Shown here one piece after another: positions 5,506 to 63,725 of a DNA stretch of 64,000 nucleotides. The DNA comes from Enchytraeus crypticus (Eukaryota; Annelida; Clitellata; Enchytraeida; Enchytraeidae), in the NCBI GenBank assembly GCA_905160935.1, contig CAJHZI010000203.1, positions 640,001-704,000 on the forward strand, written 5' to 3'. The stretch's first letter is position 1. Each line of letters begins with the position of its first letter. The notes under the pieces were generated by a model. That model was not told the origin of the DNA, made no database searches, and saw only the letters and a list, made by a program, of their open reading frames with translations. The position numbers and the translations under genes are program-made.

Positions 5506-8500
5506 TTATTTATTTATTTATTTATTACAATTATGCATAAATAGAAATAAGTGAACCCATTCACAATGGGTTATGCCTTATTCGCACCATATGAAGCCTA
5601 TCACTAGAGTAACAATATGGCTTCTGAAGTGGTTTCCAGTTGCCTTCCGCATCTCTAACTTAGTTGCCTCTAACGATATTGCAGCTAAAGATTGGTTTAT
5701 TATTCAGTGTCCCGGTTACAATACGGAAACATCCAGTTATATCAGTTAGTTGAATATATGAATGAGTATTATTATGAGTAACGTAGTATAAGTAAACTGA
5801 TTGTGAGATTCCAATAAACCTTTGTCTTTTTAATAGCTTCTTGGAAGCAACACAGTACACATTTAATTTGTATTCTATTCTGTGTTTTTAGAAAGTTCTT
5901 CAATTCATGCTTCTACTACTGATGACAATGTTTGGAATGGTGAGCGTTGCACAAACCACAGTATTAATATCTCACTCATCTGCGACACTCTTTGGGCATT
6001 CACTCTGCCAAAACGCGGTAAATAAATAGTAATAAAATAAATAATAAAGGCTTTAAGTAGGTTTCCTTATACAACCATGATGGGACGTCCCCAGCACATG
6101 TCAATTCAACTCGATTCATTCCAAAGCGATATGAAAAAAGATGTGCTGAGGGGAAAGAAAAGATCCTAAACGATGCCAGTCCGGTGATAAAAAAAACAGT
6201 CAGGCTAGATGAAAAAAGTCTATATTGGGAAAAGATGTGTCTTCAACCTACAACGGAAAGTGGAAGTAGTAGAACATGAGCGAAGATCAGGAAGCAGAGA
6301 GTTCCCAACAGTAGAAGCGGAGAAAGAAAATGAATGTCTACCTAAGGAAGTGAGAATATTAGGAATTTGGAGTAGTTTGTTATCGGAAGAACGAAGCTTA
6401 CGAAAAGGTTGATATTGTAATATGAGATCTCCTTGTTTCTTTATGTCTTAACAGCGCAGTTGTTAGAGAGTCAGATAAGGTTATGAAGTTTTTAATGACA
6501 AATCCTGAGGTGAATTGTACTCCCGTGGGTTCGACTCCTGACCGCGTTGATTCGAGAGTAGGATTTAAGAGAGTCAAAAGACTGGTTAAACTGAAAGTTG
6601 AATAAATTGACTAATAGTTTCAACATAAGATATCAAAGCGATAGATATCAACATGATTGGTAATTCACGTTAATCGTATTCTACTTTTAGTTTAATTACA
6701 ACTTATTACATAGAAATAAGCACGGTTGCAATTCGCAAATCAACTTCCTTGGTTAACGTGAGGATACGTAGAGTTTCATTTTATGGATCGACATAGACAG
6801 GTTTAAATAGGAAATGGAATCAAAAGTGCCCCACAGTTATACCAAGAGGACATTCCATGCTCCCTAAAAGGATAAGCGTGGGCACATGGAATGTGAGAAC
6901 AATGGGTGAAAGGGGAAAGTTAGGAAATGTGAAGAGGGAAATGAAAAGAGGGAAAATATATGTCCTACGGATGAGTGAAGTAAGGTGGTTGGGAACTGGA
7001 GATTTTTTAAGTGATGGGTACATGGTTGTATACTCCGGAGGAGATAAAAGGGAGAAGGGCGTGGCTATGATATTGGATAGAAATATAAGTGAACGAGTAA
7101 CAAAGGTTCTCCAGTGCAGTGACAGACTGATGTTAGTGCGGATCAAAGCAGATCCAGTAGATTTGGTGTTTATCCAAATCCACACGCCTACATCAGCCTC
7201 AGAGGATGGGGAAATTGAAGCGATGTACGAAACAATAGAAGGAATGATTAAAGGAGAAAAGGCCACAGATCAAGTGATAGTTTTGGGGGATTGGAACGCG
7301 GTGGTGGGTGAAGGGAGAGATGGAAATGAAGTTGGGGAATATGGTCTAGGAAAAAGAAATGAGAGAGGACAGAAATTGGTTGACTTTTGCAATAGAATGC
7401 GATTAGTGGTGACCAGTACTTGGCTCGAACATGAGAAGAGAAGGCGTTACACGTGGAAGAAACCAGGAAGCACAGGAAACGAGAGAAGATACCAGATAGC
7501 CTACATTCTGATTAAGCAACAGTTCAGGACTAGTATGAAGAATTCAAGAGCCTATCCAGGAGCCGATGTTAATTCAGACCACAATCTAGTAATGGCAAAA
7601 GTAGGGTTTCAGATGAAGAAAATACTTAAGAAGAAAAGCAGTAAGAGATGGAATTTGAACGGATTGAACAAGAAAAGAAGTCAGTTTCAGGAAGTAGTTG
7701 AAAGAGAAGTTAAGGAAATGAAGGACTAAGAAAGAACAGGGGTAAATGAAAGATGGTGTCAGCTAAACGAGGCTATTATAATAGGTACAAAAGAAGTTTA
7801 TGGCTTTTGTAAAGCTAACAAAGCTAAGAAATCCTTGGATCACAAGCGAGATGCTAGACAAAATGGATGAAAGGAGGAAATGGAAAAGTATTGACACCAA
7901 TCACAGCCGAAGGAAATATAAAAGCTTAAACAATGAACTTATAAGAATTACAAACAAAGCAAAAGATCACTGGTGGAGTAAAAAGTGTGATGATTTAGCA
8001 TAATATGATAAAAGAGGGAGATTTGATCTAGTATACCTGGAATTCAGGGTATTAACAAGAACCGATACGAAAAGAAAGGAGACGCAAACAACATTAGTAT
8101 AATGGGTAACGATGGAGAATTGAAGACCGAGCCGGTAGAAGTAAAAGAAAGATTGAGAGAATATGTAGAAGAATTATATGATAAGGCTGGGAAACCAGTT
8201 CAAGAGGATTTTAAAATAGAAGAAGAGAATATCATAGAAAACGATAAAAGGGGCCCTGATTTAATGAAGGAGGAAATTTATTCTGCAATTATCAGTATGA
8301 AGAAAGGGAAAGCAGTAGGAATAAATGAAATCCCAGCGGAATTCTTGAAAATGTTGGAAGGAGAAACACTCAGTAAGTTAATGGAGGTATGTATGGAAGT
8401 GTATAGTACAGGTATTTGGCCAGACGACTTCACCAAGTCAGTGAAGATCCCAATCCCCAAAAAAGCCCATGCTGTGGAGTGTTCGGATTACAGAACAGTC

Positions 8501-16534: not shown

Positions 16535-18096
16535 TAATAACAATAATAACAACAATTAGAGTGCTACAGTCATCAATGACAACATCGAGCACATTTGAGA
16601 CAAAATCAAGCCGGCGAGCAAAAAAGAAGGTTCAAAAACGGTGCAAATTCCAAAATCCAGAAATTCAGTCCAAAGTAAAGGGAGTTAAAGAAAAGGTGGT
16701 TAAGGCGTAGGTCGCTGCTCATGGACACTGGATGGAAAAGAGAGATGGAAAAGATAGGTCTTCAACTGCTTATGGAACTGCTCATAGGAAAGCAAAGGCT
16801 GATGTGATTCAAATGAAGATTTCCAAAGATTGGATGGAAGAGAATTCCAGATCTGAGGTGCAGCATGCTGGAAAGGACGATTAGATAGCTTAGAGCGTGA
16901 AGGTAAGCTCGGTCTCACAAGAGTAATTAACTTAGAAGACCGAGTAATAGGAGGCTGCATCACTTTAATCAAGTGAGACATACAAGTTTGTCCAGGGATG
17001 GCGATGGACTTATAGGTTAACGAAGCTGTTTTGTAAATGATACGCTCTTTAATCTTTAGCCAGTGCAAAGACTCCAAAATAGGCGTAACCTGTGAGTACT
17101 TGGAACTACAAAAAATTGCTCGCGTAAGAGAATTCTGAACAAACTGCAACCGATCAATCTTACAGCCAGGGAGATTTAAAAACATGGAACTGCAGTAGTC
17201 CAACTTCGATTACACAAGAGCAGCTGCAATTGTAGCAGTGTCCAGTTGTCTCACGTGACAAATATGGACGTATTCGACGAAGATCACGGATATGGAAGAA
17301 ACATGTTTGTGAAGTTTTAGTTATGTGTTCGTGGAAGGTTAGGTGTTTATCAAGGATAACACCGAGATTTCTCACAGAAGAAACAGGTGATATTTTAATA
17401 CCCGAAGATAACGAAAAAGTTTTCCCATTCAGCTTCAGAAGCTGTTGAGGTGTCCCGACCAACAGTCTTAGATGGATTAAGTGCCAAGAAATTAGCAGAC
17501 ATCCAAGAGGAGATAGACTGAAACTTTGTGCAGGAGGGTTTCAGCATTAGAATAGGAGTTAGGGGTGAAACAAGTGTACATTTGAGTGTCATCAGCATAT
17601 AGTTCATGATCAAGAGAATGAGAAGAGATTAGAGGAGATTAGAGTGCTTAGGGATGTTGTATAGAGGTTAAAGAGGATAGGACCAAGAACGAAGCCTTGA
17701 GGCACACCATACTTTAAGTGAGAAGGTGAAGAGATGTACTCCATCACTTTCACACTAAAGGAACGATCCGTCAGATAGGAGGAAAACCAATCAAGAACAA
17801 TTCCACGAACACCAAACCAGGAAGAAAGACGTTCCAGAAGAATATTGTGATCAATGGTGTCAAAAGCGGCCGAAAGATCAAGCATACATAATCCAGTTAA
17901 GCGTTGTGTGCACATGGCATTAACAATAGAATTGCACACTGATAGAAGCACCGTTTCAGTTGAACGATGCTTAGTATAAGCAGCTTGATGCTTATTAAAT
18001 AGATCATTGTAAGAGAGATGAGTTGAAAGCCTCTGAAGAACAATTCTTTCAGTGAGCTTAGATATGTATGACAGATTAGATATAGGCCTGTAATTG
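16535..18096 (-). pseudogene. CR1/L2-like non-LTR retrotransposon, 5'-truncated
   Basis: On the minus strand, reverse transcriptase begins at 'NYRPISNLSYISKLTERI' (about 18096), continues through 'LDLSAAFDTIDHNILLERL' and 'YGVPQGFVLGPILFNLY' (17610-18113), then a frame change, 'PVSSVRNLGVILDKHLTF' (17160-17462), 'CKIDRLQFVQNSLTRAIF' and the C-terminal block (16700-17203). It ends in a 3' UTR with 'ctctaattgttgttatt' at about 16535. The sister copy at 56.3-58.15 kb is about 90-95% alike by eye. 5' truncation is typical of target-primed reverse transcription. Frame breaks near 17200, 17460 and 17610 make it inactive. Clade (CR1/L2 group) is inferred from motif style. Confidence 0.85.
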
Positions 18097-18109
18097 CATA
18101 AGCAATAAA

Positions 18110-18310
18110 GCAAAGACCTCTCTGCATTTGAAATACTATATAGATATTTATGCAGGGTTGGATTTGTAAACGTTTTACAAGGGAGGCTTTAGGGGATCGA
18201 AGATTTGCTAGAGCTCTGTTGTAGTGGAGGGGTGGGGTTGTTATAACTTTAGTTTGTCGGTGGGGGGGCACACATCTGCCAAGGAGGCAGCCCCCGTAAC
18301 CCCCAGCAAA
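18110..18310. repeat. G-rich MITE-like fragment
   Basis: 'ggggttgttataactttag', 'gtgggggggcacac' and 'ggcagcccccgtaaccccc' resemble the G-rich ends at 10.7-11.3 kb. Overlapping open frames are not genes. Confidence 0.4.
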
Positions 18311-19325: not shown

Positions 19326-19669
19326 TGATTACAACAGTTTAAATATAAATTTAAATGATAAATATTTTATGAGGCACTATTAAACAATACTAATTGTCAT
19401 ATGTAAAGAATTCAATGTTAGATGTATGGATTATATACAAAAGTCATTGTGTTTCAGAATTACATAGCAACAATTCTATAAATTTCTGATCTGAAAACTA
19501 TAAATTAAACTGGTTGACTAACTAATCATGATCATATGAACTATTTGTTATTAAATCATTCTTCTACTTGGAATACTCTTAAAGATTCTACTGCGAATCT
19601 CTGTACAATACTATTCAGGATATTGTTTACTATTTATTCTTTAAACCACATTAATTAATAGTCCCAAAC

Positions 19670-20530
19670 ATGTTCAAGTTACCGTCAAAGATTCAACTCG
19701 TTTCCGGCTTTGCTGTGGGCTACGTTCATTTGTTTGTCTTTTCTATACCCATCATTGCCTACGTTCTTCTAATCCCAACCGTCTATGCCGACTCGCCAAC
19801 CATGTATTGCATAGCAGCCGTTTTAACGGCATATATGGTTCTCAATGTAGCCGCCAACTACTACCTCATGAAATCTCGGCCAAGTTACGTTTACAGTGAT
19901 CGAGGAAACACTAAGGAGGAAAGAAATAACCGATACGTCTACGTGAATGACGATGGTTCTTCTGATGAGCGTCTACACTGTATGATCTGTGATATTGAAG
20001 TTACGCCACGAACGTACCACTGCGCCATCTGTAATCATTGCATCATCCTGCGGGATCACCATTGTTTCTTCGCTGCCACCTGCATCGGAGGAACAAATCG
20101 AACGTATTTTGTCAGATTCCTCCTTCACGCCGCTCTAGCATCTGCCTATGCTGCATACGGGTTTTTCCAAACGAGTCTTATACTATACCCGGTGGATTCT
20201 TATCTCACAATGTTCATACCTGTATCGCTGTTGAAGTGGTTCTACGATGAAATAAACGAATGGAGTCTAGTTCTGTACGCTCTTCTCTACATGTGCACGT
20301 TAACTTGCATTGCGACAACCTTTCTCTTTCTCTACCAGGTGTTCATGTTGGTTCAGGGAAAGGTGAGCTATGAGTTTCAGAAGCAGCGGGTGTGGTGGAG
20401 TGCAGAAGGATGGAAGAAAGGAGAGCTGGATCCTTATTTGAGTCTGGCGTCAGTAATTCCACTGGATTTATTCTCTGCCAAGACGAAAGCGGAAATGATG
20501 CAAGATTGTTTGTCAGATAAATTAATTTAG
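19670..20530 (+). CDS. DHHC-type palmitoyltransferase, ZDHHC22/24-like, intronless
   Basis: A single 286-residue frame with no splice sites needed. Two hydrophobic helices (about 16-40 and 43-67) precede a cysteine-rich DHHC domain (about 102-153): C104-C107, 'TYHCAICNHC' (115-124), 'RDHHC' (128-132, catalytic DHHC at 129-132) and C138. Two more membrane stretches follow at about 146-172 and 197-229. The DHHC domain between TM2 and TM3 of a four-pass protein is the family layout. The enzyme transfers palmitate from palmitoyl-CoA to protein cysteines, usually at ER/Golgi membranes. 'DHHCFF..TCIG' and 'VQGKVSYEFQK' near the last helix resemble ZDHHC22 (about 260 residues) more than the main ZDHHC groups. 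A clear TTxE motif is not seen. The start at 19670 is the first ATG and places TM1 normally. Exact orthology (22 versus 24) is not settled. Confidence 0.92.
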   Translation: MFKLPSKIQLVSGFAVGYVHLFVFSIPIIAYVLLIPTVYADSPTMYCIAAVLTAYMVLNVAANYYLMKSRPSYVYSDRGNTKEERNNRYVYVNDDGSSDERLHCMICDIEVTPRTYHCAICNHCIILRDHHCFFAATCIGGTNRTYFVRFLLHAALASAYAAYGFFQTSLILYPVDSYLTMFIPVSLLKWFYDEINEWSLVLYALLYMCTLTCIATTFLFLYQVFMLVQGKVSYEFQKQRVWWSAEGWKKGELDPYLSLASVIPLDLFSAKTKAEMMQDCLSDKLI

Positions 20531-52346: not shown

Positions 52347-55323
52347 TCACAGGATTTGAACAGATGACTTTCTGTCTTTAGCCGCTCCATCGGCTATCGT
52401 ATGTCTGCAGCCGCAGTTCAGGAATCTGGAAAGAGAATTAGGAGAAGCTTCAGCTCTTTCCAGGTCGTCCTTGACTTTCATCTCTTCCAAGGTCTTGTTG
52501 AATTCTTCTCTCGCCTTACGCATTGTGAAGATGAAGAGAACGACGGCGATCAGGATCTGAAATAAGAACAAAACAACGGTCAGTGGATCAGTTTTTAATC
52601 TTTTCCATATTCCTCAACTATTTCATTATAAATTTAAAGTAATTTTATTTCAATCTGAAATTTTAGCTTTAGTCTGTGGCATTAATGGTAGCCAGTTTGG
52701 TTTTGTGACTTGGTATACGTCTGTATGATCGGTAGATGTACCTCAATGTAATACAGTGCTCAACTTACCACTGAATAACTGCTGCTGCTGATAGAGTAAG
52801 GTTGACAGAATTTATCACAATAATATATTATATTATTATGATGATAGATTATTATTATAAAAATTACTATTATTATTATTGTTATTATTATTATTGTTAT
52901 TATTATTAATATTAATATTATTATAATTATTGGTATTATTATAATTATTATAGATTTAAAGGCTACTGGATTAAGGTTATGTCTAAAGGTTTACCTGAGC
53001 AGCGAATACAGAGTAAGCGAGAGAGGAGTTGCCGTTGGATGAGATAACTTCCTCCATAGACCTGAGTGTTGAGCCCACATACACGTGCAGACCTTGAGAG
53101 GGTAACATGCCCAAAAACGACGCCAACATATAACGCTGCACCGTTATATCTGCCATCTGTTAACATATAACAATACATCATATAACGCTGCACCATTATA
53201 TCTGCCATCTGTTAACATATAACAATATAACATATAACGCTGCACCGTTATATCTGCCTTTCGTTAATATATAACAGTGCAATATACAGCATTGCACTGT
53301 TATATCTGCCATCCATTAACGTATAACAGTCCATCACAAAGCACTATATTGCAATATATACCTTCTTTAAACATATAACAACACAACTTACAGCCTTGCA
53401 CAAAGCACATTACACCTGCAAACTGTTAACATGCGTGTATAGCAGTACAACATGTAATGCTGCACTGTTATATATGCTATCCGTTAACGTACAATAATAC
53501 TACATGTACAGCTGTACTGTCATATCTACCATTTGTTAATGTCTAACATTGCAACATATAAAGCTGCACTGTTATATCTACCATTTGTTAATGTCTAACA
53601 TTGCAACATATAAAGCTGCTCTGTTATATCTACCGTCTATTAATGTCTAAAACTGAAACAAATAATGATGCATTGGCAGATATAACAGTACAGATGGCAC
53701 TGTTATATTTACAATCTGTTAAACTACGATATATAACACTACTGTTACATTATATCTATTGACATATATCACACATATCTGTCATATGTTAAAATACAAC
53801 AACACAATGTATACTGCTGCACTATTATTTCAGCATTATTTAACATATAACACAAAGATCTGCCATCTGGTAACATACAAAATACAACACAAAATATCTA
53901 GAGCGCAGTACTTAGTGTTCCATCATTAATGAAGAACTCGAGAACTAAACTACGAACAACGAATAGAATTTTGCCTCAATAACAGATTCAAGAATTAATC
54001 TAAATTTCTTTATCGAAGGAGGGAGTAAATCAAGCAGAAATGAATAGGTTAACTCCACTAACATAATAAGTCAAACTGTAAATTTTGTTTCATCTGTTAA
54101 AAGAGTTTGGGAATTAATTTTAATTCAAATTTAAGCTCTAGAAAAGAAGAAGAGAATAAGCATTTCACAAATTCTGAATTAAGAAGGAATGTTACACCTT
54201 TACAGAAATTTTATATAATTTAGAATTAATATAACATAACAATAATATTTTTTAGAAGTACACATAATCAAAATGACTATTCTTACAAACTGACAAATAA
54301 ATGCAGATATATCTGTACTTTTCTTTAATAAGTTTTTCAGTAAAGATGAAAAATAGCAATTTCAGTCATCATCATCTTCCCATGAATCTCAGTTCAACCA
54401 AGGTCGGGATATGAATAGACTTTCTACTGTCCTCTCTGTCCTACACCACACCACCAGCCAATCCCCCATTTGAGACTTTTCCAAACGTATAAATTTTTGC
54501 AGCAATTTCTGGAGCCTAGGTGCTCCAAATTAACAATTCCAGTATAGATGAAATAAAATAGCAATTTCATTCCACAGACAGATTATAGTAAAATAATACA
54601 TACAGCAAAGAGGGCATTCTGGAGTCCAAACGGAATGGGACTCAGTCTAGCTAGCACGATCACCTTCAATCCACTTCCCTGCTCCACCACTCTAACGACA
54701 GATCTCATCGTCTCATTGGCCAGCCATTTCCATATAGAATCTCGCAGAAACCGCTGAATGACGTGATGCGCAATGAATATTCCAATCAAGGCACAGGTGA
54801 CCACAATCACAATCCCAGTTAAAAATCCGTAGAGATAACCGACAGCGATGTTGAGCAGAATGTATCCCCAAGTCATAGGAAATGAGACAGCGGTGAATAG
54901 GACGGAAAAAATCATTAGGCTCGACCAAACATTCGATTGTTCGAGGGACAGAAGAAGTAGCTTGATATAGTCACGCCCGAGGAACAAGAAAAGGCAGACG
55001 ACGGATATGACAAAAATGGTATAGAGAATAATTCTCAAACAGCTGACATCTGGCTTGCTAATGTTACTATCAGAAATGTTGACTGAGCTACAGCTTTGCT
55101 TGATATGTTGATTTTCACTACTTTCCATCACAGACATTTTGACTACAAAGTCTGAATGCCGGACTGGCTCCAATCGTAGAGCGACAGATTGAGGAGAACC
55201 AATGAGTGAAACAGTGCGTCTATGGGACGTGTTATCTCCCAATGTGATCAACTGGGCAGCAGGCATCGAGCTTGGAGAGCTACCCATTCTCTTCAAAAAC
55301 CCACGCTTCCACTGGTCCGACAT
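52347..55323 (-). CDS. TMEM64: TMEM64-like protein (VTT/SNARE-associated domain), three exons, complete
   Basis: Exons on the minus strand: 55323-54604, 53156-52995 and 52556-52347. Both junctions are phase 0, with sites GCT|GTATGT, TTAACAG|ATGGCA, GCTCAG|GTAAAC and TTATTTCAG|ATCCTG. The product is 363 residues, close to vertebrate TMEM64 (about 380). It has a long hydrophilic N-terminus (1-95), TM at about 96-116 and 133-155, the diagnostic 'FTAVSFPMTWGYILLNIA' and 'GYLYGFLTG' (142-170), TM at about 169-187, 'GSGLKVIVLARLSPIPFG' (216-233), 'SFLGMLPSQ' and 'STLRSMEEVI' in exon 2, a final helix 'ILIAVVLFIF' and a charged cytoplasmic tail. VTT proteins sit in ER/Golgi membranes (relatives TMEM41, VMP1 and yeast Tvp38). 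TMEM64 has been linked in vertebrates to SERCA2 calcium handling and Wnt signalling. Start chosen as the first ATG. Confidence 0.93.
52850..52955. repeat. ATT trinucleotide tract in TMEM64 intron 2
   Basis: Imperfect (ATT)n with GTT and AAT interruptions, ending 40 bases from the exon 2 donor. Confidence 0.8.
53156..53900 (-). repeat. Tandem repeat copied from the acceptor of TMEM64 exon 2
   Basis: About 12-14 copies of a unit of roughly 52-60 bp fill intron 1 next to exon 2. On the minus strand the unit reads 'ATATGTTAACAG' (intron end), then 'ATGGCAGATATAACGGTG' and 'CAGCGTTATATG' (start of exon 2). The first duplicate (boundary at 53208) is nearly identical to the exon and keeps a usable AG 52 bases upstream of the real one. 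Copies diverge with distance from the exon. Confidence 0.88.
54364..54520 (-). repeat. SINE family S3, reverse orientation, 3' part
   Basis: 'catcatcatcttcccatga', 'ccaaggtcgggatatgaat', 'ccacaccaccagccaatc' and 'tttctggagcctaggtgct'. Lies in TMEM64 intron 1. Confidence 0.7.
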
Positions 55324-56265
55324 GAATGGTTCATGAGAAGGATATTCATCAGATTACTGGCAAACAAATGAGATGAGTATCCAGAATTACTAGAATTGTT
55401 GTGAAAATTAAACAACTGTGGTAAAAAGTCTTGAGAGTCTAAGACATCTAAATATGACAACAAAATATCCTTAAGATTGTAAGAATTCTTACAATATAGT
55501 TTACCTGCTGTATTTAGACTTAATTCAAGACTAGAAGTTCTTACTCAACCTGTATAGAATTTACGAAACTGATTAAAATTCCAATATAATATTTAATCAT
55601 ATAATATATGTATATAATTGTTAGCACATCATACACAGGTTAGACATTATAAGGAACACATCATCCATGATGATTTCAATCATATTTATTGACAATTATA
55701 TAAGGCGATAAGCAGTTTAGTTAATTGTCCATTAACCAGTCACAATATTTGGAGCACTTAAATGTCTTACACTCCGGTCGATTAAATAACGAAATTTTTA
55801 ACGTACATAATAATTGGTCATTTAAAATTTCGAGACGTTAATACTTAACAGTCTAAACTAATTTTACAAACAAAATAAACTGTAAAATATAAAGATAAAA
55901 TTAGACAAAAACAAAAATATGTTCAAAAGAATATAAATAAACAAACATTCCATCAGCTGATAGTCTACTTTTCATCTTCTTTCTTACATTAGAGTGTCAT
56001 TAAAATATTTCTAAACTGCTGAATAATTAATTTAATTTCCATTAAAATTCTGTAAATGCCAAGCTATACTGCATTTCTTGCGTAATATTTGACTAAGTTC
56101 TATTAAAACAAAATATTGCAAAATGTACGGCTCTGCTAACCAAGCAATAAGGCGATAATTATCGCCTATCGTCATCTATCTATTTAATAATCATTATTAT
56201 TATTATTATAATTATTAGTTAATTATTATCTATCTCTCCAGCTCCTAACCCTACTCCTCATACTC
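55324..56265. other. Upstream flank of TMEM64; no feature recognised
   Basis: AT-rich DNA between the TMEM64 start and a LINE; it should contain the TMEM64 promoter and 5' UTR. A degenerate S1-like stretch ('gtccattaaccagtcac', 'cactccggtcg') lies at about 55690-55785. (ATT)n at about 56190-56220. Confidence 0.35.
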
Positions 56266-56439: not shown

Positions 56440-56505
<66 letters not shown>

Positions 56506-58150
56506 GGCATATTTCCTTGCGCTTTTAAACTTGCAGTTATTACTCCATTGCTTAAAAAGCCCACACTGGATAAGGAATCATTGTCAAATTACAGGCCTAT
56601 ATCTAATCTGTCATACATATCTAAGCTCACTGAAAGAATTGTTCTTCAGAGGCTTTCTACTCATCTCTCTTACAATGATCTATTTAATAAGCATCAAGCT
56701 GCTTATACTAAGCATCGTTCAACTGAAACGGTGCTTCTATTGGTGTGCAATTCTATTGTTAATGCCATGTGCACACAACGCTTAACTGGATTATGTATGC
56801 TTGATCTTTCGGCCGCTTTTGACACCATTGATCACAATATTCTTCTGGAACGTCTTTCTTCCTGGTTTGGTGTTCGTGGAATTGTTCTTGAGTGGTTTTC
56901 CTCCTATCTGACGGATCGTTCTTTTAGTGTGAAAGTGATGGAGTACATCTCTTCGCCTTCTCACTTAAAGTATGGTGTGCCTCAAGGCTCCGTTCTTGGT
57001 CCTATCCTCTTTAACCTCTATACAACACCCTTAAGCTCACTGATCTCTTCTCATTCTATTGATCAGGAACTATATGCGCTGATGACACTCAAATGTACAC
57101 TTGTTTCACCCCTAACTCCTACTATGATGCTGAACCCCTCCTGCAACAAAGCTTTCAGTCTATACCCTCGTGGATGTCTGCTAATTTTTTGGCACTTAAT
57201 CCATCTAAGACTGAATTCTTATTGGTTGGGACACCTCAACAGCTTTTGAAGCTGAATGGGAAAACTCTTTCGTTATCTTCGGGTATTACAGTATCACCTG
57301 TTTCTTCTGTGAGAAATCTCGGTGTTATCCTTGATAAACACCTAACCTTCCAAGATCACATAACTAAAACTTCACAAGCATTTTTCTTTCATATCCGAGA
57401 TCTTCGTCGAATACGTCCATATTTGTCACGTGAAACAGCTGCTACAATTGGTGCTGCTCTTGTGCAATCGAAATTGGACTACTGCAATTCCCTGTTTTTA
57501 AATCTCCCTGGTTGTGTGATAAATCGATTGCAGTTTGTTCAGAATTCTCTTACGCGAGCAATTTTTTGTAGTTCCAAGTACTCACATATTACGCCCATTT
57601 TAAAGTCTTGGCACTGGCTAAAGATTAAAGAGCGTATCATTTACAAAACAGCTTCGTTAATCTATAAGTCCATCGATCACCATCCCTGGACAAACTTGTA
57701 TGTCTCACTTGGTTAAAGTGATGCAGCCTGCTATTACTCGGTCTTCTAAATTAATTACTCTTGTGAGACCTAGCTTACCTTCGCGCTCTAAGCTATCTAA
57801 TCGTTCTTTCCAGCATGCTGGACCGCAGATCTGAAATTCTCTTCCATCCAATCTTCGGAAATCTTCATTTGAATCACATCAGCCTTTGCTTTCCTATGAG
57901 CAGTTCCATAAGCAGTTGAAGACTTATCTTTTCCATCTCTCTTTTCCATCCAGTGTCCATGAGCAGCGACCTGCGCCTAAACCTCCTTTCCTTTAATTCT
58001 CTTTACTTGGGACTGATTATCTGGATTTTGGAATTTGCACTGTTTTTGGACCTTCTTTTGCTCGCCGGCTTGATTTTGTCTCAATAGTGCTCAATGTTGT
58101 CATTGATGACTGTAGCACGCTATTGTTGTTATCATTATTGTTATTATTGC
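56270..58150 (+). pseudogene. CR1/L2-like LINE with a CT microsatellite grown inside its reverse transcriptase
   Basis: Pieces: 56366-56440 ('MDPIPTSLLKKC', 'LTLIVNLSLS'), a (CT)~31 run at 56438-56503, then 56510-57249 ('NYRPISNLSYISKLTERIV', 'DLSAAFDTIDHNILLERL', 'YGVPQGSVLGPILFNLY'), 57093-57716 ('SKTEFLLVGTPQQLLKL', 'GVILDKHLTFQDH', '[18 protein letters not shown]') and the C-terminal block to about 57995. The YxDD region is shifted out of frame near 57065-57090. The 3' UTR ends at about 58145 with 'gctattgttgttatc' plus ATT repeats. Sister of the minus-strand copy at 16.5-18.1 kb. It separates the TMEM64 and syndecan genes. Confidence 0.88.
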
Positions 58151-59032: not shown

Positions 59033-61692
59033 ATGCATACATTTTGTAATGAGATTTTCTGTAAAATATTTTTCACCCGTGCCTACTGGATTTGGTGGCT
59101 TGCTGGTCTGGTGTCATCAGTCGTAGCATTGCCGGTAATGATAACTCATGAAAATCTTTCGTATCGGTTATTTTCTATGTAAATTATTATATATCTTGAT
59201 GTTACTATTTGTAGATTTTTTGCATAGAAAAAGGTATGCTACACTTGGCTTTGCTATAGGCTGAAGACGCTATACCGTGCTTAGGCTGAATTAGCACGGT
59301 ATAGTGACTTCAAGCCAAATTTGGTTGTTATATTTTATCTGTCTCTCGTATTTTGCCTAGTGGCAGGTTCAAGGTACTTATTCCTACTAATCCGCTGCTT
59401 TTATGTTTCATAAAGAGCACTCCACTGATCAAGGATTGTGCCCTTCACAAAGGGCTAGATCTTGATGGCACTTTAATGTAACCTATGGCTTGGTTAAGAT
59501 GGTTTCTTATGTGGTTTCACGTTGCATTCCACAGTTCTTGCTAATTTGCCTTTTACGACTTGTGCAGTTTATGATTGGTCTATTCTTAACTTGACTTAAC
59601 TTAATTATACTGGTTCAGGAAGACTTTAAGACTTGTAGCACCAGTCTAGTCATGATGTCCTTATGAGACATAAATTTGTGAAGGGGTAAAATACTAGAAT
59701 TTCATACCTTGACGAGTCAATCCAGCTTAAACAGAGACATGCATAAAAACACGTACCGGACACAACAAGGGATATAAACTTATGTTAATAGATTTATCTG
59801 TAAGGAATTCAACATTTGGTTTCTTCGTCAAAACTCAAAGGGAAAGCTAATTTAAGCGTTGGTTTTCTGCCTCGAACTGTAGCCTGTGATGGTACATGCA
59901 CTGGATATGAACCAAGCACCTACTACAGTCGGAAAACTTTGCCGACATGTTGCTGGCATTGACTGTCAGCGACTTTTGCTATTTACTATGCTTTGCAACA
60001 TCATCCTTCAATGAGGTTACTATCGTTAGACCTTTATTGCAACTCAATTTTTAAAAATATGTAATTCTGAAATATTTGTTATTATTACTAACACAGATGG
60101 TTCCTCTTCATTCACCACCCAGTAACAATTTGAGTCCACCGTTACGAGCAGGTTCTGAGCCAAGCTATTACGAGCTCTACGAAGATTATGAAAGTGATGA
60201 TGATGGAGAAGGATCAGCCAATGGTTTATATTAATTTTTTATATATGGTATAATATAGGGGATATGATATAATATAGGGGATATGACTGATGATATGGTG
60301 TTGGACAGGGAGAACTCGAGAAAGTCTATTTGCATCCCGACCCTGGTTAAACTGGGATTTAAGGGAAGATGATAATGATACATGATGATATGGTATAAAC
60401 CAGTAGCATGTCGGTAAATTATCCAGATGCGGATCGTTAGGTGCTAGATTCAAATACATTGCTAGCTCTGTCACTAGCTTGTTTCGAGACGGTACACTGA
60501 TTTTATCATGGATTTCTACTTTAGTTTTTTGTAAATTAATTAATTAATTAATATCTAAAGTTTAAATAGTAAAATGTTGATATATTTATTAGAACGTTTT
60601 AGCAATGATTTAGTTAGAACAAATTTTTTTTAAGGAATAATTTCTTAAAATTATTAATTATATATATTTCATTGAGTGATTACTAATTAATGGTAATTGA
60701 TGATAATTAACACTATTATGTTCATAGATGACTAATTGATGCGCAGATTGGCCAGCAATTCCTACGTCTAACTCTGCTAGCTCTTGTGCTAATGTTCGTG
60801 CCACGCTAGAAGCACGACACTTAACAGGAGCTTTCATACCAAGGTGCATGGGTGACGGGGAGTACGCACCAGTGCAGTGCGCCAATTCATTGTCATGCTA
60901 CTGCGTTAATCTTGTCGGTCAAGAAATTCCCAACACACGGAAGACTTTGTCTGTTGGAAAGCTTGATCCTGGGTCCTTTGACTGTTCTAAAGTTGGTGAG
61001 TCATAGTTCTCTATTTTCATTTGTAAACACAGGTGACGTGAGCCGTTGCACAGAAGTAAGGCTGATAATTGTAGACCCAAATTTTTAGGCTTTTGTAGAC
61101 TAGGCTTTCGTGGGATAGGCCTTTCAAGATTTGTAAGTTTTCCCATGATTAATGGAAAGAATAATTGTCTTTTCCATAACTTTCTGGAAGAGTTTTCCTG
61201 ATTTTGTTAATATGATGGAAAGGTTGCCAAAGCAAGGTGACTTCGCATCGTACTATTTCAATACTATTTAATCAGTTAGTTTTGGTTAATAAAAGACTAG
61301 AATTATTGATTGAGTAATAATTTATCAGTCTATTTAGTAAGTATTAGCTTGATTGATTTGTTAAAGATCGCACTAAGCCCATCATTCAACTACCTAGTCC
61401 ATCCAATAACTTTCCGCCTGGCAATCAGCTTTCACCTGATTGGTTGGATGTGTCTGACGATGATGACCAATCAAATGATGAGAACGTTCCGCAGACTGGT
61501 GCTAGCAATGGTAAGTCTACGTATTCATTTGTAGTGCAACATAGGTTACGTGTTATTTAATTTAATAATTATATATTGATAGTCCATGGTGTGCATGGTG
61601 CAGCTAAGAGATATAATATATATAATATATATATTATATATATATATTATATATATTATATATATATATAATACATTATCTACATATATATG

Positions 61693-61766
<74 letters not shown>

Positions 61767-63725
61767 GTATACATATAATTTCTAAGAGAATTTTAGATAT
61801 GTAAATGTTATAAGTGAATATTTGTAATTATAATTTAACCCTATTTCTCTCTTCACCTTTAATTCAATATTTAATTTAATACTATTATCAATTTTGAAAA
61901 TTTGGTGTTTTACATATTCAACAAGTTGTAGGCTCTACATGGGCTGAAACCATGATCTCTTCAATCTTTTGGTTTTTATGTGTATCCCAACCAACCAATC
62001 TTATGAATTATCTAATTTCGATTCCAATTTTGTTCAGGAATCAAAATATACGCTTTTTAATTTTAATTAAATAAATTGAATAGTTAAATATAAACAAATA
62101 AGAATAAATAATACAATAAATAAGAATACAATAAATAATAATACAATAAATAAGAATAATAAACATAATTTTTTAATTTTATTACTTTTTAGTTTGCTTT
62201 ACACTTTTGTAGAGGAATTAGTTTTGCAAGCATCGTAATTAAATTAATTCTAACCCTGACCCTAGTTAGAGTGGGATCTACTCATCCTCATCATCAAATG
62301 ATGACGAGGATGAAGTAATTTATTGAATCTTAGTAAAATATTAAATATTAAGTTAAACAGAACATTTTCTTATGCAGATCTTGGACTGTATATTTGAATT
62401 ATTCCTTCTTGATTATTTTTAAAAGATACGACACGGCCCAAAGAAGAGGTGGGAGGTGGAGGAAGTAGGGAGAAGGGAATGCACGAGAGTGAGGAAGCTT
62501 CTGTGTGGCTAAACCTTGTTGCCGATAAGAAAAAACTTTCCAGTTAGTCATTGCAGGCTCTCCTTTATAGTCCTTATATTAACGTGCCTAATTTTCCAAG
62601 CTTAGTGTCAGATTCCTGTCTCAGAATCATATCCTTGTCTGAGAAGGCACTGGAGTTGAACCCTACGCTTACTGATCCACAGTCAGTAGCTTATTAACAG
62701 GCTAATGGATTAGCTAATTAATGTACATTAATTGTCGTGAAATATTGCATATAAATTATATCTATGCACTATATCTATGTATTTGCATGTGACTCGTATG
62801 TTTGAACGATCCTTTTTGGGTGCTTTATTTCCAGTAGTGTTTTTGGGTGCTTTATTTCCAGTAGTGTTTTAATAATTATTCTTATGTCAAAATGTACATA
62901 ATTTAAACATACTCTTAAGCCTATTTTGAAGAAACTTGGTGATGCTAAATGAAATATGTGAATGTTGTTGGAAATTGCTATTAGAAATATCAATTACAGC
63001 CAGAAATCATATACAGAAATCAGACTAGGATATTGTGTCAATTTTGATGTAGCTGATGTATATGTAATATGCTTACGGTAGTTAATTTGTTATAAACCAG
63101 CAGTGGATTGTGATTTCTACTTACGCTATGGAAAATTGATTCATACTCATTCTCAGTAAATTTAATATTGAAAATATTAAAATATTAATATTAAAATTTA
63201 ATATTTAAAATTTTAATAAATTTGAACTTAGTGAAAGAGTAAACTAGTTAACTAAAGGATACTTTATTTGATGAAATGATAAATTGATTATAATTGTCGA
63301 TGAATCGTTTAAAAGTTGCCATTGTGTACAGTGTGCCACTCAGTTTGCTCTGTTGTCTCACCACTCTCAATGAGTTAACCCCTTGTGACCTGTTGAGGCA
63401 AATTTGGGACATAGCATTTGCACGCCAATGTTTTTAAACTGGTTAAATTTATGGCCTTAATTAGCTAATGGTTTTATTAGTCTATTGATTATTCAATTGA
63501 TTGACTGATCGATTGATTATTTGATTGATTGCTGCAGTTGTAGTGTGTGCTACTCTCTTTGCCCTGCTCTTTCTAACTACTCTTCTCGTATTTCTCATAC
63601 TGCGATTGCGCAAGAAGGACGAGGGAAGCTACAGACTCGATGAGCCGAAGGTAGCCAGTTCAACTCAGTCCCGAGCCGGTTCTCATCTCACACCTCTCAA
63701 CCAAGATAAAGAGTTCTTCGCCTAA
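59033..63725 (+). CDS. Sdc: Syndecan with an ectodomain thyroglobulin type-1 domain, five exons
   Basis: Exons: 59033-59134, 60097-60223, 60747-60995, 61367-61510 and 63538-63725. Phases match at each junction (0, then 1, 1, 1), giving 269 residues. Exon 1 is a signal peptide ('WIWWLAGLVSSVVA', residues 18-32). Exon 2 ends in an acidic Tyr-rich stretch ('YELYEDYESDDDGEGS', 55-70 or so). Exon 3 is the thyroglobulin type-1 domain. Exon 4 is Pro/Asn/Asp-rich ('DVSDDDDQSNDEN'). Exon 5 encodes the transmembrane helix (about 208-229) and the syndecan cytoplasmic tail: C1 'RLRKKDEGSYRLDEPK', a variable part, and C2 end 'KEFFA' (usually EFYA, a PDZ-binding end). Syndecans are membrane proteoglycan co-receptors for growth factors and matrix. 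No Ser-Gly attachment dipeptide occurs in this model. A small in-phase exon at 62426-62464 may be missing. Exon 2 donor (AATG|GTTTAT) is weak. Confidence 0.85.
59345..59590 (-). repeat. SINE family S2, reverse orientation, in syndecan intron 1
   Basis: Tail 'ctagtggcaggttcaagg', 'aaagagcactccactgatc', 'aacctatggcttggttaag', 'ttatgtggtttcacgttgc', head 'gtgcagtttatgattggtc'. Confidence 0.7.
60230..60390 (+). repeat. SINE family S3, 3' part, in syndecan intron 2
   Basis: 'gaactcgagaaagtctatt', 'gcatcccgaccctggttaa', 'actgggatttaagggaaga' then 'tgataatgatac'. An S4-like scrap ('gcggatcgttaggtgcta') follows at 60430. Confidence 0.65.
60747..60995 (+). other. Syndecan exon 3: thyroglobulin type-1 domain
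   Basis: A symmetric phase 1-1 exon of 249 bases, with acceptor gatgcgcag|AT and strong donor GTTG|GTGAGT. It encodes 82 residues with six cysteines at protein positions 90, 110, 121, 127, 129 and 156. The pattern is that of thyroglobulin type-1: 'GAFIPRC', 'DGEYAPVQC', 'CYCV' (the CWCV signature with Tyr for Trp), 'GQEIPNT' and a final Cys. Known members include nidogen, testican, IGFBPs, EpCAM/TROP2 and the p41 invariant chain; several inhibit cysteine cathepsins. Frame, phase and strand all place it in the syndecan transcript. Confidence 0.88.
61608..61765. repeat. AT dinucleotide tract in syndecan intron 4
   Basis: About 155 bp of (AT)n with TATAATATA interruptions. Confidence 0.9.
62426..62464 (+). 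other. Candidate extra syndecan micro-exon
   Basis: After 'cttgattatttttaaaag|', very like the exon 4 acceptor, an in-phase stretch (two bases, then ACG ACA CGG..) encodes TRPKEEVGG and could end at g|gtggag (62455) or a|gtaggg (62464), both phase 1. Its charged residues would suit the juxtamembrane position. Not needed for an intact frame and unsupported by any recognised motif. Confidence 0.25.

What the first reader, a model, noticed from the sequence alone, without database searches (positions are those of the whole stretch)
59033..63725. A syndecan whose ectodomain contains a thyroglobulin type-1 domain
Seen: five exons on one strand join with matching phases. They run from a signal peptide through a six-cysteine thyroglobulin type-1 exon (60747-60995) to an unmistakable syndecan tail (RLRKKDEGSY..EFFA). 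Known: syndecan ectodomains are usually unstructured, and Tg-1 domains occur in other secreted or membrane proteins such as testican, nidogen and EpCAM, some inhibiting cathepsins. Inferred: the symmetric 1-1 exon arrived by exon shuffling and could give this co-receptor protease-inhibitor or ligand-binding activity. I know of no published syndecan like this.
Basis: partly seen in the sequence, partly recalled or inferred. Interest (0 to 1): 0.9.

Follow-up and report, generated by a model that had tools for sequence, protein, structure and literature searches.

The report
Syndecan carrying a thyroglobulin type-1 domain
A soil worm's genome carries syndecan-like cell-surface receptors whose outer part contains a folded cysteine-rich (thyroglobulin type-1) module that elsewhere sometimes blocks proteases, an arrangement we could not find described before.

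Summary
Five exons with GT/AG sites and compatible phases encode 269 residues; Pfam finds Thyroglobulin_1 (E 4.7e-13) and Syndecan (E 3.3e-12). The strongest support is new: 3 of 6 syndecan-tail loci in this genome (window, C376, C436) have a Tg-1 domain upstream on the same strand, with matching phases around it. An HMM found none within about 20 kb upstream of the other three. The mitochondrial contig is 15,205 bp, the length published for the annelid Enchytraeus crypticus.

Corrections: the window copy has no Ser-Gly in its modelled ectodomain, so it may carry no glycosaminoglycan, while partial models of the other five have one or more; its tail also lacks the V-region tyrosine; and the one-exon 1-1 cassette is not universal, since C436 splits the domain.

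Function is inferred: a membrane-tethered Tg-1 module, protease inhibitor or ligand binder, on a syndecan tail. My paper searches, mostly of listings, showed no such syndecan. No RNA and no other animal genome could be examined. A new variant of a known family.

The parts
59033..59134 (+). Exon 1, putative signal peptide (MHTFCNEIF...SSVVALP), ends in phase 0
   Evidence: Open frame and GT donor; hydrophobic stretch read by eye. Least certain exon; C376 has a comparable phase-0 first exon
60097..60223 (+). Exon 2, acidic Tyr/Asp/Glu-rich segment (SYYELYEDYESDDDGEGSAN), phase 0 to 1
   Evidence: an acidic exon with the same phases precedes the Tg-1 unit in C376 and C436
60747..60995 (+). Exon 3, complete six-cysteine thyroglobulin type-1 domain, 249 nt, phase 1-1
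   Evidence: Pfam PF00086 E 4.7e-13; PDB sequence matches to thyroglobulin, saxiphilin (best 2.4e-13) and the p41 invariant-chain fragment 1icf_I (1.8e-7)
61367..61510 (+). Exon 4, juxtamembrane linker (DRTKPIIQ...WLDVSDDDDQSNDENVPQTGASN), phase 1-1
   Evidence: C436 has a juxtamembrane exon of the same phases
63538..63725 (+). Exon 5, transmembrane helix and syndecan cytoplasmic tail (RLRKKDEGSYRLDEPK..DKEFFA, stop)
   Evidence: Pfam PF01034 E 3.3e-12; aligned with five other tails of this genome

Best explanation
A real annelid gene (very probably of Enchytraeus crypticus) encodes a type I membrane protein with the syndecan transmembrane and cytoplasmic module and, in its ectodomain, a complete thyroglobulin type-1 domain between an acidic segment and a juxtamembrane linker. 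It is one of at least three such genes in the genome, beside three syndecan-tail loci in which no Tg-1 was found. Shown by sequence: exon structure, domain content, the paralogues, and no Ser-Gly in this copy's modelled ectodomain. Inferred: the Tg-1 domain works at the cell surface as a membrane-tethered module, most likely a thyropin-like inhibitor of papain-type cysteine proteases in the pericellular space or endosome, while the tail (RLRKKDEGSY, C-terminal FFA) links it to PDZ and cytoskeletal partners as in other syndecans. In C376 and C436 the domain would sit beside potential glycosaminoglycan chains; in the window copy it probably acts without them. I put the architecture at about 0.93 and the protease-inhibitor mechanism, taken alone, at about 0.4; the confidence given is for the whole statement.
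For: Gene model, GT/AG sites and phases; both Pfam domains above cut-off. Two paralogues with both domains, on partial models (C376: Tg_1 8.1e-14, Syndecan 4.9e-8; C436: Syndecan 1.1e-18, Tg_1 8.8e-14) and with the same phases at the flanks of the Tg-1 unit. No Tg-1 hit above 8.3 bits in about 20 kb upstream of the C450, C400 and C184 tails. The window Tg-1 exon matches saxiphilin (2.4e-13 to 1e-12) and the cathepsin-L-inhibiting p41 fragment (1.8e-7), both described as inhibitors in PMC7863939 (passages). EpCAM, a membrane protein, inhibits cathepsin L through its Tg-1 domain and needs surface expression to do so (PMC8114703, abstract).
Against: No transcript seen. A review says inhibition is confirmed for few Tg-1 proteins and calls the repeat 'occasionally employed' as an inhibitor (PMC7863939). 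[quoted passage not shown] The window domain has CYCV instead of CWCV and a longer stretch before its last cysteine than C376 or C393b. Inhibitory loops could not be modelled. The Tg-1 tree does not unite the three copies.
Confidence: 0.5

Rival explanations
1. Same gene and architecture, but the Tg-1 domain is a ligand-binding, dimerising or spacing module and not a protease inhibitor.
For: A review says inhibition has not been demonstrated for nidogen, IGF-binding proteins and TROP2 (PMC7863939). The three syndecan Tg-1 domains differ much between C3 and C4 and before C6. Chains are said to be needed for testican-1 to inhibit cathepsin L (PMC8365427), and the window copy has no Ser-Gly.
Against: The p41 fragment and saxiphilin are among the PDB sequence matches; EpCAM's Tg-1 domain is reported to inhibit cathepsin L (PMC8114703 abstract).
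Confidence: 0.35
2. Exon 3 is an optional cassette; the main mRNA skips it and encodes a plain short syndecan.
For: Exon 3 is symmetric and skipping it keeps the frame; its acceptor and the donor before it score poorly.
Against: Three loci keep an intact six-cysteine Tg-1 unit, and in C436 it needs two exons joined in the right phase.
Confidence: 0.1
3. The Tg-1 exon belongs to another gene, or the locus is a decayed or misassembled copy.
For: No RNA evidence; the C1 region of the C376 tail is degenerate; one donor and one acceptor of the window model score weakly.
Against: Same order, strand and phases on three different contigs; no frame breaks in the window model; exon GC 42-48% against intron GC 28-36%.
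Confidence: 0.05

Closest known systems
Syndecan family (PF01034)
   Same: Transmembrane helix, C1 RLRKKDEGSY, the conserved first V-region Leu, C-terminal hydrophobic-x-Ala end, acidic ectodomain segments
   Different: Folded Tg-1 domain in the ectodomain; C2 is EFFA instead of EFYA; no V-region tyrosine; no Ser-Gly in the window copy; six syndecan-tail loci in one invertebrate genome, whereas PMC1464127 (passages) calls multiple syndecans vertebrate-specific
EpCAM / TROP2
   Same: Single-pass membrane proteins with an extracellular Tg-1 domain; EpCAM's inhibits cathepsin L (PMC8114703 abstract)
   Different: Only a weak sequence match (7pee_A, E 0.084); no syndecan tail; no EpCAM family among Pfam hits
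Testicans (SPOCK)
   Same: Heparan/chondroitin sulfate proteoglycans with a Tg-1 domain (PMC9797564 passage; PMC8365427 passage); testican-1 inhibits cathepsin L
   Different: Secreted, with follistatin and calcium-binding domains; no syndecan tail
CD74 p41 (MHC II invariant chain)
   Same: Membrane protein with one Tg-1 domain; its p41 fragment matches the window exon (1icf_I, E 1.8e-7)
   Different: Type II topology and a different tail (recalled)

Membership tests
Syndecan | Transmembrane helix plus conserved C1 region (KKDEGSY) | tested here: met
   PF01034 E 3.3e-12, RLRKKDEGSY intact
Syndecan | C2 region, almost universally EFYA in Bilateria | tested here: inconclusive
   DKEFFA, one residue off EFYA; other loci end DREFFA, DRDLYA, DQEYFA, NDQEYYA, NGQEFYA. 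PMC1464127 names EYYA and EIYA as exceptions and predicts the variants bind PDZ domains. Binding not tested
Syndecan | V-region tyrosine conserved throughout Bilateria (PMC1464127) | tested here: not met
   No tyrosine between LDEPK and DKEFFA in the window tail; the other five tails have one or more in the V region
Syndecan | Ser-Gly glycosaminoglycan attachment sites in the ectodomain | tested here: not met
   0 Ser-Gly in 207 residues of exons 1-4; partial models of C376, C436, C400, C450, C184 have 3, 3, 7, 3, 1. A scan of the introns found 3 in-phase exon-like pieces, none with Ser-Gly, but its thresholds would have missed one accepted donor and one accepted acceptor
Syndecan | Type I topology with a signal peptide | tested here: inconclusive
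   Hydrophobic exon 1 read by eye; no predictor or N-terminal data
Thyroglobulin type-1 domain | Six cysteines with the QC..CWCV-type core | tested here: met
   PF00086 E 4.7e-13; six cysteines aligned with four other Tg-1 domains of this genome; the core reads CYCV
Thyropin (Tg-1 protease inhibitors) | Inhibits a protease | not testable with these tools
EpCAM/TROP2 family | Homology beyond the Tg-1 domain | tested here: not met
   Pfam at E up to 1 gave four families for the whole protein, none of EpCAM or TROP type; Tg-1 match to 7pee_A only E 0.084

The most novel reading that the evidence does not exclude
Annelids evolved a branch of the syndecan family in which a tethered Tg-1 inhibitor or receptor domain was added, and in the window gene has replaced the glycosaminoglycan chains: a glycan-free syndecan that senses or blocks pericellular cysteine proteases and reports through the KKDEGSY / FFA tail.
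Probability: 0.3. Interest if true: 0.7.

Novelty: new variant of a known kind. Interest (0 to 1): 0.55.

Why it matters
Syndecans are usually described as cores with unstructured, chain-bearing ectodomains (recalled). A branch with a folded, possibly protease-inhibiting module, and one member apparently without chain attachment sites, would separate what the conserved tail does from what the heparan sulfate does, in an animal that is already a laboratory model with a published genome. Six syndecan-tail loci also contradict the 2006 statement that multiple syndecans per genome are vertebrate-specific (PMC1464127, passages read).

Tried and rejected
Stray Tg-1 gene or chance neighbour: rejected because the same order and phases recur at two other loci. 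Universal symmetric cassette: rejected because of the split Tg-1 domain in C436. Single origin of the Tg-1 domain by phylogeny: not supported; the seven-sequence tree, with two partial domains, has low support and does not group the three copies. Hidden Ser-Gly exon: a simple scan found none, but its thresholds (donor 6, pyrimidine 0.5) would have missed one accepted donor (5) and one accepted acceptor (0.41). A juxtamembrane exon in C376 could not be placed (read by eye); my C376 model joins Tg-1 and transmembrane exons directly. The first exon of C436 was not recognised in the listing and was not searched for further. Structural comparison of the Tg-1 loops: not possible. Other annelid or animal genomes: no tool here holds them. 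A sponge or cnidarian origin was considered and dropped after the mitochondrial contig. The sea-anemone matrisome paper PMC12549020 (passages) and PMC9354978 (passages) had no bearing.
Full report
Observation. I place them at 59033-59134, 60097-60223, 60747-60995, 61367-61510 and 63538-63725 (+). All four introns are GT..AG and the phases are 0|0|1|1|1. The spliced frame is 269 residues without an internal stop. Pfam (E up to 1) lists four families: Thyroglobulin_1 (E 4.7e-13, residues 98-143) and Syndecan (E 3.3e-12, residues 208-250), both over their cut-offs, and two below cut-off (Cadherin_C_2 0.16, Gram_pos_anchor 0.25). Exon GC is 42-48%, intron GC 28-36%. Exon 1 is the weakest part of the model.

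Organism. The window lies in contig C121 of a 524,188,772-base, 802-contig assembly. The best COX1 match is on contig C802, which is 15,205 bp. Its open frames of 80 residues or more, which I named by eye except COX1, run cox1-cox2-cox3-nad6-cob-atp6-nad5-nad4L-nad4-(gap of rRNA size)-nad1-nad3-nad2 on one strand. PMC8460440 (abstract and passages) gives the Enchytraeus crypticus mitochondrial genome as 15,205 bp with the Lumbricus gene order, and its nuclear assembly as 525.2 Mbp in 910 scaffolds. The scaffold count differs (910 against 802), so the species is very probable but not proved. Its taxonomy entry is Annelida, Clitellata.

Paralogues. The genome scan with PF01034 gave 10 matches at 9 places, two of them adjacent in C376. 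Six places end in a syndecan-like hydrophobic-x-A tail: C121 (window), C376, C436, C450, C400, C184. C373 and C642 end in EWYV and look to me like neurexin-type tails (the likeness is recalled); C269 was not viewed. The scan with PF00086 gave 8 matches: C393 twice, and C552, C376, C785, C121, C601, C576. C376 has its Tg-1 exon 2.2 kb upstream of its tail exon on the same strand. C436 was not listed by that scan; tblastn (E 0.069) pointed to its first half, and an HMM built from six Tg-1 domains of this genome found both halves. They join in phase 0 just before the third cysteine and give a complete domain. Splice sites in C376 and C436 were chosen by eye. On these partial models Pfam gives C376 Tg_1 8.1e-14 and Syndecan 4.9e-8, and C436 Syndecan 1.1e-18 and Tg_1 8.8e-14 (C436 there without exons 1 and 4). 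Phases: the acidic exon is 0 to 1 in the three genes; the Tg-1 unit is entered and left in phase 1 in the three; the tail exon is entered in phase 1 in the three; a juxtamembrane 1-1 exon is found in the window and C436. In about 20 kb upstream of the C450, C400 and C184 tails the HMM gave nothing above 8.3 bits. For comparison it gave 86.8 and 89.5 to the window and C376, which were among the sequences it was built from, and 18.8 and 17.9 to the two halves in C436, which were not. A Tg-1 domain cut into more pieces could have been missed. So Tg-1 was found at 3 of 6 syndecan-tail loci.

What differs from a textbook syndecan. The modelled window ectodomain (207 residues) has no Ser-Gly dipeptide. 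Partial models of C376, C436, C400, C450 and C184 have 3, 3, 7, 3 and 1; one of the C436 sites lies inside the Tg-1 domain, and whether any carries a chain is unknown. An unseen exon could add one to the window gene; a simple scan of the introns did not find it, though its thresholds would have missed one accepted donor and one accepted acceptor. The C2 end is EFFA, and the V region has no tyrosine although the other five tails have one. PMC1464127 (passages) says C2 is almost universally EFYA in Bilateria with some variants, that a V-region tyrosine is conserved throughout Bilateria, and that multiple syndecans in one genome are vertebrate-specific; this genome does not fit the last statement. 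The C1 region of C376 is degenerate.

What it probably does. Against PDB sequences (E up to 0.1, 13 distinct sequences) the Tg-1 exon matches thyroglobulin, saxiphilin (2.4e-13 to 1e-12), the p41 fragment of the invariant chain (1icf_I, 1.8e-7), a longer invariant-chain construct (2.9e-6) and weakly TROP2 (0.084). PMC7863939 (passages) describes p41 as inhibiting cathepsins L and V in the picomolar range through a three-loop arrangement, lists saxiphilin as an inhibitor of papain and cathepsin L, and stresses that inhibition is confirmed for few Tg-1 proteins. PMC8114703 (abstract) reports that the Tg-1 domain of EpCAM inhibits cathepsin L and that loss of surface expression abolishes this. 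PMC10889554 (abstract and passages) reports that glycosaminoglycans modulate a two-domain tick thyropin. [quoted passage not shown] this is against inhibition by a chain-free window copy and in favour of C376 and C436 being the better candidates. By inference, a Tg-1 module held at the membrane on a syndecan stem would control or sense extracellular or endosomal cysteine proteases, and the signalling half would act through the conserved tail. No step of this mechanism was tested.

Origin. Exon-phase agreement suggests one ancestral Tg-1 syndecan that was duplicated. Against this, a tree of seven Tg-1 domains from this genome, two of them partial, gives the split of the three copies only 2% support and pairs C436 with C552 at 64%. 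The domain is short, so this is weak evidence either way.

Print search. Of 5.39 million open papers, 5 hold both 'syndecan' and 'thyroglobulin type'; by their listings they concern SMOC (two), EpCAM, a cancer gene signature and CCN proteins. Wider searches listed no syndecan with this domain, but I saw only the listed part: 20 of 675, 25 of 170, 14 of 14, 15 of 17 and 15 of 80, as titles and abstract beginnings. Two proteoglycan reviews that hold both words use the domain word for testicans (passages). In PMC8460440 the words syndecan and thyroglobulin do not occur in the main text. Subscription papers and the E. crypticus gene annotation were not searchable.

Verdict. Real, and a new variant of a known family: the architecture is strongly supported by sequence at three loci, the function is open.

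Noticed in passing
L023 reverse complement 7094-7228 (contig C184): A syndecan-tail locus with the canonical EFYA end has an upstream exon-like stretch resembling the first half of an EGF-like domain (TCPDDSDFCKNNGRCTIVGEEKIVFC). Pfam gave no match to this 33-residue piece and I did not find a second half in the stretches viewed.
   Followed up: partly
L025 8662-8937 (contig C376): The start of the transmembrane exon is tandemly duplicated with its acceptor site, two near-identical copies about 96 bases apart; only the second runs on into the tail.
   Followed up: partly
own genome C121, C376, C436, C450, C400, C184: Six syndecan-tail loci in one invertebrate genome, three without a detected Tg-1 domain. 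C450 and C400 have long acidic exons with Ser-Gly and look like ordinary chain-bearing syndecans.
   Followed up: partly
own genome C361, C424, C796, C373, C166: Five short COX1 matches outside the mitochondrial contig; four of them (all but C373) contain TAG or TAA besides TGA, so they look like nuclear copies of mitochondrial DNA.
   Followed up: no
window 54583-55353 (-): Open frame with a VTT domain, Pfam E 2.5e-11.
   Followed up: partly
window 19655-20530 (+): Open frame of 291 codons with a DHHC palmitoyltransferase domain, Pfam E 9.1e-24.
   Followed up: partly
window 56440-57716 (+) and 16700-18188 (-): Two closely similar non-LTR retrotransposon reverse-transcriptase remnants, judged by eye from the open frames.
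   Followed up: no
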